Shown: in pieces, positions 33,258-37,355 of the stretch
Layout of the letters: every line of letters begins with the position of its first letter
Position numbering within the stretch: position 1 is the stretch's first letter
Assembly (NCBI RefSeq): GCF_900104625.1
Contig: NZ_FNVZ01000005.1
Coordinates: 434,001-498,000 of the forward strand
Source: Leptotrichia massiliensis
GTDB lineage: Bacteria; Fusobacteriota; Fusobacteriia; Fusobacteriales; Leptotrichiaceae
Direction of reading: 5' to 3'
DNA: 64,000 nt
Made by a program: the position numbers and the translations under genes
The notes under the pieces: model-generated
Databases searched by the model: none
Told to the model about the DNA's origin: nothing
Seen by the model: only the letters and a program-made list of their open reading frames with translations

Positions 33258-33293
33258 GTTCATCTTTTAATTATGCAGATTTAAATTTATGTT

Positions 33294-33690
33294 AATACTA
33301 AACCCCGTTTAAAAATGAGAATAAATTTTTATAATAGGGTTGTTCAATAGCTAATTTATAATCATTCAACTTTTTCATTTTTATTTCTGTAGGATTGCTC
33401 ATTGCCGCAAAACCTTATCTTGCAGTAAAGGTTTATCCTGATAATTAAAATTGTGGCAAGATTGCTACGCAATAACCTATGGCTAGTCTACGACATTTTT
33501 CTGCACTGACAAAAAACTCGCTATGCTCAGACAGTTTTGCCATCACAGAAAAATGCTCCGACGGATTAGTTCATGCCGGATTCTGTTTAAAAAACGAAAA
33601 TTATATTTTAAATTATTTGAAAATATTAGATTTATATCCTTTATTAGAAAAATCTATAACAAATTCGTTATTTAAATGGTGTTTAGTATA
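33294..33690 (+). repeat. Dispersed TIR repeat (MITE-like), copy 1, about 397 bases
   Basis: Ends: ATACTAAACCCCGTTTAAA (33295-33313) and TTTAAATGGTGTTTAGTAT (33671-33689) are inverted repeats of each other. The inside matches, in reverse complement, the element at 34847-35095 over most of its length. Shared runs include GGTTGTTCAATA, GTAGGATTGCTCATTGCC and CCTATGGCTAG. Copy 1 has about 140 bases more, including a hairpin at 33494-33555. A 70-codon frame inside (33479-33691) reads through the terminus and is not considered a gene. No transposase. Confidence 0.8.
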
Positions 33691-33769: not shown

Positions 33770-34801
33770 ATGGAAAATATTAATACAGAAAAAATAAAGC
33801 TAGATAAATTAATAAGAGATTTTGAGAATACAAAATATTTTGGATATATGTTTTTTGTAGAATACGATGGTCAAAAGTTTGAATCTTTTGATGAAAATCC
33901 TAATAAAAAGAGTGTTAAATCAGAATTTAGGAAAATTTTGGAAAAGAATAAAATAAATATTTTTAAAGGTATCCAGCAGGCTGGAAGAACTGATGCAAAT
34001 GTGAGTGCAAAAGAAAATATTCTTTATATAAATTCCAAAGAGATAATTGATTTTTCAAAATTAAAATTTTTGGAAATAGAAGGGCTGAAAATCAAAAAAA
34101 TAGTAAGAACGTTGCCGTTTCTTGAATTTCCACAAATGATTGAAAAAAGATATTATATTTATGAATATCCAAAAAAACTTAGGAAAAACGATGAAGAGAA
34201 AATAAATCAGATTTGCAATAAAGTATCTGGGAAAAAGGATTTTTACGAATTTACTTCAGAAAAAGGGAAAAAATTAAAAAATCACACAAGAGAAATTTTT
34301 GTGAAATATGAAAATGATAAGCTGTATTTTGTGGGAGATGGATTTTTGCCACAGCAGGTGCGGATTATGAGTAATTTTATTTTAAATAATACAAAGTTTG
34401 ATATTGAAAAGTTAAATGATGAGAATTTTGGAAACAGGAAATTAAAGATAAAAGATAAACCGCTTGATGGGAAATATTTGACACTTATGAAAGTTGACTT
34501 TTCAGAGGAATTAGAGAAAATCAGTTTTTTTGACGTGAAAAATATTGAAGAATTGATAAATTTGAAAAATGAAAATAGTATAAGTTTGGAAATAAAAACT
34601 TCTGAAAGTAAAATAGATAATTTGAATGAAAAAGTAAAAAATATTGACGAAATTACTAAAATTAGAAAAATTCAAAAAAATAGCTATTTTACGGTATTTT
34701 TCGTTGAAAAGAAAGATAAAGGAGAATTTATTGGGAAAAGAGGGAAGAATATTAGAAAGTTAAAGAGGATTTTTGGGGATATAGTTGTGAAAGAGATTTG
34801 A
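33770..34801 (+). CDS. TruA-family pseudouridine synthase with a C-terminal KH-like domain
   Basis: 343 residues, longer than the 245-270 of TruA. Residues about 20-240 are TruA-like: FFVEYDGQKF, then the catalytic motif QQAGRTDANVSA with Asp75, a KRYYIYEYP strand, and FVGDGFLPQQVRIMSNFIL. After an acidic linker the last 45 residues (SYFTVFFVEKKDKGEFIGKRGKNIRKLKRIFGDIVV) form a KH-type RNA-binding unit with a GKRG loop (residues 322-325). TruA makes Psi38-40 in tRNA anticodon arms; the active-site Asp is present so this should be active. The KH unit could add RNA contacts. AAGGATATAAA precedes ATG 33770. The gene stands between two inverted repeat elements. Confidence 0.8.
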   Translation: MENINTEKIKLDKLIRDFENTKYFGYMFFVEYDGQKFESFDENPNKKSVKSEFRKILEKNKINIFKGIQQAGRTDANVSAKENILYINSKEIIDFSKLKFLEIEGLKIKKIVRTLPFLEFPQMIEKRYYIYEYPKKLRKNDEEKINQICNKVSGKKDFYEFTSEKGKKLKNHTREIFVKYENDKLYFVGDGFLPQQVRIMSNFILNNTKFDIEKLNDENFGNRKLKIKDKPLDGKYLTLMKVDFSEELEKISFFDVKNIEELINLKNENSISLEIKTSESKIDNLNEKVKNIDEITKIRKIQKNSYFTVFFVEKKDKGEFIGKRGKNIRKLKRIFGDIVVKEI

Positions 34802-34846
34802 AAAAATTGAAAACACTTTATAGATTATGTAGAAATTTATTCTTTT

Positions 34847-35095
34847 TATAAACCCCATTTAAATAACGGATTTGTTACAAACTTTTCTAACAAAGGATAA
34901 AAATCGTAGTCTAGCCATAGGTATTGAGTAGCAATCTTTAATTATCAAGATAAACATTTATTGTAAGAGAAGGATTTGAGGCAATGAGCAATCCTACGAA
35001 AATAAAAAAGAAAAAAATCAAATGATTATGAATTGTTTATTGAACAACCTTATTCTAAAAATTTATTCCCATTTTTAAAGGGGGAATAGTATTAG
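34847..35095 (-). repeat. Dispersed TIR repeat, copy 2, inverted relative to copy 1, about 249 bases
   Basis: Reverse complement of copy 1 at 33294-33690. Ends: ATAAACCCCATTTAAA on the left and TTTAAAGGGGGAATAGTAT on the right, again inverted repeats. It lacks the inner 140-base hairpin segment and an 11-base stretch (TTGTGGCAAGA-type) of copy 1. The 34802-35206 gap otherwise shows no gene. Confidence 0.8.
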
Positions 35096-35206: not shown

Positions 35207-35623
35207 ATGTATATAATTAGAAAAGCAATGGAATATTTTAAACCGAAAATTAACAGGGCTTATATGAATGAGGCTTTGAAAAAATTGACAGAAAAAGAAA
35301 AGAAAATATTTTTGGAAATGTCTGATTACGACAAGTTTCATTCGCTTGAAGTTTATAAAAAAATAAAAAAAATGGAACTAAAAAATAATGAGAAATATTT
35401 AAAATTGGCACTTCTGCACGACTGTGGGAAAGAAAATGTGTCGATTGTAACGAGAGTTTTGCATAAATTAGGATTTAAAACACAGTTGCAAAATCACCCA
35501 CAAAGAAGTTTTGAAAAGCTGGAAAAAGTAGATGAGGAAGTAGCGGTTTTGGCGAAAAATCATCATAATAGAGGTTATTCGCAGGAGATGGATATTTTTC
35601 AGAAATGTGATGATGAGAGTTAA
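35207..35623 (+). CDS. HD-domain phosphohydrolase-like protein
   Basis: 138 residues. The metal ligands are recognisable: His in FHSLEVYKK, the LLHDCGKEN HD pair, His in AKNHHNRG, and the last Asp in KCDDES. These are the H...HD...H...D pattern of HD-superfamily nucleotidases or phosphodiesterases. The domain is small and ends right after the last ligand. No signal peptide. GGAAAAGAGTGG precedes ATG 35207. It is 36 bases from a Fic protein gene and may share its transcript. Confidence 0.72.
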   Translation: MYIIRKAMEYFKPKINRAYMNEALKKLTEKEKKIFLEMSDYDKFHSLEVYKKIKKMELKNNEKYLKLALLHDCGKENVSIVTRVLHKLGFKTQLQNHPQRSFEKLEKVDEEVAVLAKNHHNRGYSQEMDIFQKCDDES

Positions 35624-35659: not shown

Positions 35660-36328
35660 ATGAAAGACAAGTATAAAATGACATTGGAGGAGAATATTTT
35701 TGTTGCGAAAAGAAATATAGTGGATTCAATTTGGAAATCGGCAAATCTGGAAGGAATAGCTGTGACTTATCCTCAGACAGAAACGATTTTTCAAGGGCTG
35801 GGAGTTCAGAATATGAAAGTTAAGGATATAAATGCCATTGTTAATTTAAAACATTCGTGGGAATTTATTTTGGAAAATATTGAATATCCTCTTGATTTAA
35901 ACTATATTTGCAAAATTAATCAACTAATTGGGGAGGCAAATGTAAATCCTTTTCCTGGACAATTGAGATTTTCTGATGTAAGTATGGGTGGAACAGATTG
36001 GAAGCCTAAAATTCCAGATAAAGAAAAAGTGAATGGTAATTTGAATAAAATTTTGAAATGTGAAAACTCTGCAACGGAAAAAGCAATAAATTTAATGTTA
36101 TATTTAATGGGAAGTCAGCTTTTTTATGATGGAAATAAAAGGACAAGCATGATGACAGCAAATCACGTGATGATTCAAAATGGTGCTGGAATTATTTCTG
36201 TACCAATAAAACAGCAAGAGAAATTTTTGGAACTGCTTGTAAAATTTTATGAAACTAATGATATGAGTGAAATTAAGGAATTAATTTATAATCATTGTGT
36301 TGATGGGATAAATTTTAAAAGAGAGTAG
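35660..36328 (+). CDS. Fic/Doc-family protein with atypical active site
   Basis: 222 residues. The Fic core motif reads QLFYDGNKRTSMMTAN (Gln153-Arg161...), in place of HxFx(D/E)GNGR/K-R. The catalytic His is thus replaced by Gln, while the Asp-Gly-Asn-Lys-Arg anion hole and Arg remain. Near the N-terminus, SANLEG (Ser27, Glu31, Gly32) fits the (S/T)xxxE(G/N) inhibitory motif. Family members with His transfer AMP to hydroxyl groups on proteins; with Gln activity may be changed or lost. Soluble. It follows the HD gene by 36 bases. It could be a stand-alone regulator or a toxin relative; I see no antitoxin. Confidence 0.75.
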   Translation: MKDKYKMTLEENIFVAKRNIVDSIWKSANLEGIAVTYPQTETIFQGLGVQNMKVKDINAIVNLKHSWEFILENIEYPLDLNYICKINQLIGEANVNPFPGQLRFSDVSMGGTDWKPKIPDKEKVNGNLNKILKCENSATEKAINLMLYLMGSQLFYDGNKRTSMMTANHVMIQNGAGIISVPIKQQEKFLELLVKFYETNDMSEIKELIYNHCVDGINFKRE

Positions 36329-36374: not shown

Positions 36375-37355
36375 ATGAATGAAAAATATGAAGTTGAAAA
36401 TGAATTTGAAGATGAAATAGATGTTGAAAATAGTGAAAATGAGGAAAATATTGTTATTTTGAAGGAAGAGGCAGGGAGCAGGATTGATAAATTTTTGTCA
36501 GAAAGGCTCGAGTTGACACGAACACGTATTCAACAGCTTATAAAAGATGAAAATATTTTAGTAAATGAAAAAAAGACAAAGCCTGCTTATAAAATTGAAG
36601 AAAATGATACAATAAAAGTTGTAATTCCAGAACTGGAAACTGTTGAAATTAAACCTGAAAACATTGATATTGAAATAATTTATGAAGATAATGATTTGGC
36701 AGTTATCAATAAAAAAGCTGGAATTGTCGTACATCCTGCAAACAGACATTATTCGGGAACGCTTGTAAATGCAATTTTGTATCATATCAAAGATTTGTCA
36801 GGAATAAATGGGGAAATCCGTCCTGGCATTGTGCATAGGCTAGACAAGGACACAAGCGGACTTTTAATAATCGCCAAAAATGACAAGGCACATCTAAAAT
36901 TGTCACAAATGTTTCACGATAAAACTGTAAAAAAAATTTATCTTGCAATTTTAAAAGGAAAACTAAACCAGAAAAGCGGAAGAATTGTAACACAAATCGG
37001 GCGTGATAAAAACGACAGGAAGAAAATGACTGTAATAAATGATTTAAATTCAGGAAAAACTGCGATTACCAATTACGAAGTAATTTCACAGACGGAAAAA
37101 TTTACACTTGTTAAAGTTCATATTGAAACTGGAAGAACTCATCAAATAAGAGTTCACATGAAACATTTAGGTTATCCAATTCTAGGTGACAGTGTCTACG
37201 GCAGAACAGATACCGAAAAACGCCAAATGCTTCACGCCTATAAGCTTGAATTTCAACATCCGATTACAGAAGAAAATATAGAATTTATTGCAAAATTGCC
37301 AGAAGATTTTAAAAAAGCATTGAAAAAATGCGGGCTGGAATTTGAAACTTTATAA
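36375..37355 (+). CDS. RluD-type ribosomal large-subunit pseudouridine synthase
   Basis: 326 residues. After an acidic N-terminal 25 residues there is an S4 RNA-binding domain (RIDKFLSERLELTRTRIQQLIKDENILVN, about residues 36-65), then the RsuA/RluA catalytic domain with IVHRLDKDTSGLLI (Asp157), and the late GRTHQIRVHMKHLGYPILGD motif. RluD modifies helix 69 of 23S rRNA; RluC and RluA relatives have different specificity. The full S4 domain supports RluD or RluC. It is followed by rnhB after 24 bases. Confidence 0.9.
   Translation: MNEKYEVENEFEDEIDVENSENEENIVILKEEAGSRIDKFLSERLELTRTRIQQLIKDENILVNEKKTKPAYKIEENDTIKVVIPELETVEIKPENIDIEIIYEDNDLAVINKKAGIVVHPANRHYSGTLVNAILYHIKDLSGINGEIRPGIVHRLDKDTSGLLIIAKNDKAHLKLSQMFHDKTVKKIYLAILKGKLNQKSGRIVTQIGRDKNDRKKMTVINDLNSGKTAITNYEVISQTEKFTLVKVHIETGRTHQIRVHMKHLGYPILGDSVYGRTDTEKRQMLHAYKLEFQHPITEENIEFIAKLPEDFKKALKKCGLEFETL

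What the first reader, a model, noticed from the sequence alone, without database searches (positions are those of the whole stretch)
33770..34801. TruA-type pseudouridine synthase with an appended KH-like RNA-binding unit
The catalytic motif AGRTDANVSA (Asp75) is intact. The last about 45 residues give a GKRG loop (322-325) in a KH-like context that TruA proteins do not normally have. This could give the enzyme a second RNA contact or a new target RNA.
Basis: partly seen in the sequence, partly recalled or inferred. Interest (0 to 1): 0.6.

Follow-up and report, generated by a model that had tools for sequence, protein, structure and literature searches.

The report
Fusobacterial TruA relative carrying KH domain
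The gene encodes a pseudouridine-making RNA enzyme of the TruA superfamily, found so far only in Fusobacteriota beside the ordinary TruA, that has kept the catalytic site, rebuilt the surface TruA uses to hold tRNA and gained a KH RNA-binding domain, so it probably modifies an RNA that TruA does not.

Summary
The 343-aa ORF (33770-34801, +) is a TruA-superfamily pseudouridine synthase with intact catalytic residues. Its C-terminus is a real KH domain: Pfam KH_2 passes its cut-off in four of six orthologues scanned (not in this protein), and AlphaFold2 gives a confident KH-type fold. The same genome has a regular truA, so this is a paralogue. Orthologues occur in 83 of 98 Fusobacteriota genomes and in none of 291 genomes of other phyla, plasmids, phages or viral contigs searched. 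They form one clade on a very long branch apart from all TruAs. Against TruA, the RNA-contact segment (Y-G-W-Q-R-Q) reads x-S-F-D-E-x, His64 is Ser, the N..LP.DI and F..R motifs are gone, and two segments are shorter by about 14 and 21 residues. Both core and KH are under purifying selection. The gene usually overlaps or abuts a small HD-hydrolase gene; it was lost cleanly in several genera, and Streptobacillus kept the core but lost the KH. Best reading: a phylum-specific pseudouridine synthase that binds its RNA partly through KH and modifies a site other than, or besides, U38-40 of tRNA. Target unknown; no paper found describes it.

The parts
33770..34801 (+). KH-TruA gene, 343 aa
   Evidence: ORF; orthologues in 83 of 98 Fusobacteriota genomes
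33839..34519 (+). TruA-type catalytic core, residues 24-250 (D75, R73, Y129, R198, L237), with a genus-specific low-confidence insert at about 207-228
   Evidence: TIGR00071 1.6e-21; PF01416 over cut-off; VIA Z about 22 to solved TruA for the F. mortiferum orthologue model; residue mapping
33881..33901 (+). Residues 38-44, segment replacing the TruA RNA-contact motif Y-G-W-Q-R-Q (here E-S-F-D-E-N-P)
   Evidence: TruA contacts from PMC10631681
33980..34009 (+). AGRTDANVSA motif (residues 71-80) with catalytic Asp75
34520..34636 (+). Variable linker, residues 251-289, dN/dS higher than core or KH in most comparisons
34646..34798 (+). C-terminal KH domain, residues 293-343, GKRG loop 322-325
35207..35623 (+). 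Small HD-domain hydrolase, conserved downstream neighbour, often overlapping the KH-TruA gene in other species
   Evidence: PF01966 2.2e-8; synteny 43 of 51 loci; gaps

Best explanation
A Fusobacteriota-specific, TruA-superfamily pseudouridine synthase ('KH-TruA'). Shown by sequence and model: an intact Psi-synthase active site, a rewritten RNA-contact segment, loss of two TruA segments, and an appended KH domain on a variable linker, all kept by purifying selection in the lineages examined. Inferred: the KH domain grips a short single-stranded stretch of the substrate and the core flips a nearby uridine onto Asp75 and isomerises it to pseudouridine. The substrate is most likely an RNA or position other than, or in addition to, U38-40 of the tRNA anticodon arm, which the regular TruA of the same genome can serve. 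It is an accessory modification, since whole genera have lost the gene.
For: Catalytic residues invariant in 41 of 41 orthologues. Core superposes on TruA at Z 22.1-22.2, 1.9-2.1 A. KH by Pfam, PDB profile search and AF2 secondary structure. A regular truA in the same genome and in nearly all genomes. One clade, support 100, long stem, apart from all TruAs including fusobacterial ones. Tested TruA hallmark positions changed uniformly: Q27 to D, Q36 to K, H64 to S (36 of 41), Q68 to N, R110 to P. TruA residues 24-32 are an RNA-contact segment (PMC10631681). Purifying selection on core (w 0.07-0.17) and KH (w 0.06-0.25). Clean losses of the gene between conserved neighbours.
Against: No substrate or activity is shown. 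In Streptobacillus the core persists without KH, so KH is not always needed. 14 of 64 KH-bearing sequences have GKNA instead of GxxG. One 99%-complete genome has only KH-TruA and no regular TruA, which would also fit overlap in function with TruA. The deep placement of the clade is subject to long-branch effects and the tree was a quick search.
Confidence: 0.72

Rival explanations
1. It is a second, partly redundant TruA acting on U38-40 of a subset of tRNAs, with KH only strengthening tRNA binding.
For: Same fold and catalytic residues; genome G018 (99% complete) has KH-TruA but no regular TruA.
Against: TruA's RNA-contact segment and N..LP.DI / F..R motifs are not conserved and two segments are shortened; regular TruA is kept alongside in nearly all genomes, so the two are not freely interchangeable.
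Confidence: 0.18
2. The KH domain is not a specific RNA grip but a structural cap that keeps the enzyme monomeric, as the C-terminal helices of human Pus1 do.
For: It follows the last TruA strand, where Pus1 also carries a C-terminal extension; hPus1's extension covers the TruA dimer residues (PMC3983220); GKNA variants in some genera.
Against: The basic, GxxG-type loop is conserved in most members (50 of 64 with the second Gly) while the linker drifts.
Confidence: 0.15
3. An RNA chaperone that no longer depends on catalysis.
For: General precedent that Psi synthases such as TruB act as tRNA chaperones (own knowledge, not checked here).
Against: All catalytic residues tested are invariant in 41 of 41.
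Confidence: 0.06

Closest known systems
TruA, tRNA pseudouridine(38-40) synthase (TIGR00071; 1dj0, 2nqp, 1vs3)
   Same: Fold of the core; R58, D60, Y118, R205, L245 equivalents
   Different: 77 bits against an equivalog cut-off of 142.85; RNA-contact segment replaced; two segments shortened; KH appended; coexists with regular TruA
Pus1 (eukaryotic TruA-family enzyme)
   Same: TruA-fold enzyme with a C-terminal extension and RNA targets beyond TruA's
   Different: The extension is helical, not KH; oligomeric state of KH-TruA unknown
RluA/RsuA enzymes with S4, TruB with PUA, Pus10 with THUMP-type domain
   Same: Psi-synthase core plus an added RNA-binding domain
   Different: Other core families and other added domains; S4 + RluA seen here at 36375-37355, the rest own knowledge
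KhpA / KhpB, NusA and uS3 KH domains
   Same: Type II-like KH signature
   Different: Here fused to a Psi synthase; the genome has separate KhpA and KhpB

Membership tests
PseudoU_synth_1 superfamily (PF01416) | Pfam match over the gathering score | tested here: met
   29.3 bits against 23.3
TruA equivalog (TIGR00071) | Score over the curated equivalog cut-off | tested here: not met
   77 against 142.85 bits
TruA equivalog (TIGR00071) | Catalytic Asp and partner residues | tested here: met
   R73, D75, Y129, R198 invariant
TruA equivalog (TIGR00071) | G-[WF]-Q-x-Q contact segment, GVHA, N..LP.D, F..R motifs | tested here: not met
TruA equivalog (TIGR00071) | Psi at tRNA 38-40 | not testable with these tools
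   needs RNA from wild type and mutant
TruA equivalog (TIGR00071) | Homodimer | not tested
   only monomer models were made
KH domain | Pfam KH model over the gathering score | tested here: met
   KH_2 over cut-off in orthologues L064, L034, L060, L080, below it in L066 and L015; not over cut-off in the window protein itself
KH domain | beta-alpha-alpha-beta core with a GxxG loop between the helices | tested here: met
   DSSP on models; GKRG 322-325; GxxG in 50 of 64 KH-bearing sequences, GKNA in 14 (the set holds some overlapping records)
KH domain | Match to solved KH folds by structure | tested here: inconclusive
   The fold search was filled by the TruA core; the KH part was barely tested
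KH domain | Single-stranded nucleic acid binding | not testable with these tools
   needs a binding assay

The most novel reading that the evidence does not exclude
A previously undescribed, phylum-specific class of bacterial pseudouridine synthase whose target is set by a KH domain, possibly on rRNA, mRNA or small RNA, and working with an HD hydrolase encoded in the same operon.
Probability: 0.3. Interest if true: 0.75.

Novelty: new variant of a known kind. Interest (0 to 1): 0.5.

Why it matters
Each known Psi-synthase family has a limited set of RNA targets, and added domains (S4, PUA, THUMP-type) are one known way of changing them. A KH-bearing TruA relative conserved through most of Fusobacteriota predicts a Psi site that standard models would miss, and automatic annotation will call it a second TruA. 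It also gives a clear natural test: genera with the gene, without it, and with the core but no KH can be compared by Psi mapping.

Tried and rejected
KH by the window protein alone: too weak, so orthologues were used. A search for members outside the phylum found none: genome contigs patterns (29 loci, records titled as Fusobacteriota members), 291 other-phylum genomes, plasmids and phages, viral contigs. A functional pair with the HD hydrolase was tested by co-occurrence: HD is found in 90 of 98 genomes, including genomes lacking KH-TruA, so the link is by position, not by dependence. The idea that the flanking inverted repeats make the gene a mobile cassette was set aside: the repeat has 68 matches across the genome, and orthologues sit in the same gene context, with shorter gaps to the HD gene. 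No Rfam RNA near the gene. Structure search said little about the KH part, because TruA chains fill the list. Paper searches for KH with TruA, or pseudouridine synthase with Fusobacterium or Leptotrichia, found no description; the one paper on KhpA/KhpB in F. nucleatum is not held.

Full report
Check of the observation. The ORF is at the stated place and strand. It matches TruA models (TIGR00071 1.6e-21, PF01416 over cut-off), but lies far under the TruA equivalog cut-off. The KH claim rests weakly on this protein alone (E 0.03). It becomes firm with orthologues: KH_2 in 25 of 33 at E<=0.01, over Pfam's cut-off in four of six scanned individually, and a profile of the last 50 residues finds NusA, PCBP2, IGF2BP and uS3 KH chains (best 7e-6).

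What it is. AlphaFold2 models of the window protein (pLDDT 86.9, pTM 0.84) and of the compact Fusobacterium mortiferum orthologue (pLDDT 92.8, pTM 0.89) show a TruA core plus a C-terminal beta-beta-alpha-GxxG-alpha-beta unit. The orthologue's core matches T. thermophilus and E. coli TruA at Z 22.1-22.2, rmsd 1.9-2.1 A over 204-211 residues. The KH part was not tested by the structure search.

Comparison with regular TruA. The genome has a regular truA (G000:C4:99240-99965), truB, five RluA/RsuA-type genes, KhpA and KhpB. Mapping onto E. coli TruA: R58, T59, D60, Y118, R205, L245 and G157 are invariant in all 41 KH-TruA-family sequences; in contrast G25-W26-Q27 reads S-F-D (S in 33, F and D in 41 of 41), Q36 is K, H64 is mostly S, Q68 is N, R110 is P, and the N88..L91-P92..D94 motif is not kept. 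E. coli stretches 121-146 and 209-244 have medians of 11 and 14 residues here against 25 and 35 in TruA. In TruA the Y24-GWQRQNEV-32 segment contacts tRNA, and both subunits of the dimer do so (PMC10631681, PMC3983220). Whether KH-TruA dimerises is unknown; loss of TruA-type dimer contacts is inference.

Spread and history. 83 of 98 Fusobacteriota genomes and 0 of 291 genomes of other phyla match at 1e-10. A pattern scan of 84,980 species' genomes returned 29 loci, all in records titled as Leptotrichia, Sebaldella, Fusobacterium, Propionigenium, Ilyobacter, Psychrilyobacter, Cetobacterium, Streptobacillus or unnamed Fusobacteriales and relatives; plasmids, phages and viral contigs gave none. 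In a quick ML tree the family is one side of a branch with support 100 and a very long stem; long branches make its exact attachment uncertain. Streptobacillus copies (211-214 aa) lack KH and nest inside the family, so KH was lost there. Three loci of one genus (L153-L155) show the conserved neighbours with KH-TruA missing between them, and other genera also lack it. In G018 (99% complete) no regular TruA was found. Frame-disrupted copies occur in G008, G046 and G074.

Selection. Pairwise dN/dS is 0.07-0.17 for the core and 0.06-0.25 for KH, and mostly higher for the linker (short stretches, rough values).

Neighbourhood. In 43 of 51 loci the next gene is a small HD-domain hydrolase, overlapping or within 30 nt in 38 of the 43. 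In Fusobacteriaceae-type loci a TIGR03960 radical-SAM gene and ung often follow; in Leptotrichiaceae an RluA-family synthase and RNase HII follow. HD is present in 90 of 98 genomes, including ones without KH-TruA, so shared function is not shown.

Mechanism. Shown: architecture, intact active site, rewritten contact segment, selection. Inferred: U to Psi isomerisation by Asp75, substrate grip by KH, and a substrate other than or beyond tRNA 38-40. Unknown: the RNA.

Noticed in passing
33293-33500 and 34834-35094: Inverted copies of a dispersed repeat flank the gene; 68 matches to it in the genome.
   Followed up: partly
residues 207-228 and 251-289 (34388-34636): Leptotrichia-type copies carry inserts of about 20 and 30-50 residues, of low model confidence, that most other members lack.
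   Followed up: partly
35660-36328: Fic/DOC-family gene between the HD gene and the RluA-family gene; seen at this place in only two of the loci compared.
   Followed up: no
L058 6001-7019; L055; G074:C1:2799167-2800032: KH-TruA split or broken by stops or a frameshift in a few genomes; real decay or sequencing error not resolved.
   Followed up: partly
L064, L034 and others, third gene of the cluster: TIGR03960 B12-binding radical-SAM protein of unknown function often follows KH-TruA and HD in Fusobacteriaceae-type loci.
   Followed up: no
L139, L141, L146: Some Fusobacteriota genomes carry a further TruA that falls outside the fusobacterial TruA group in the tree, perhaps acquired.
   Followed up: no
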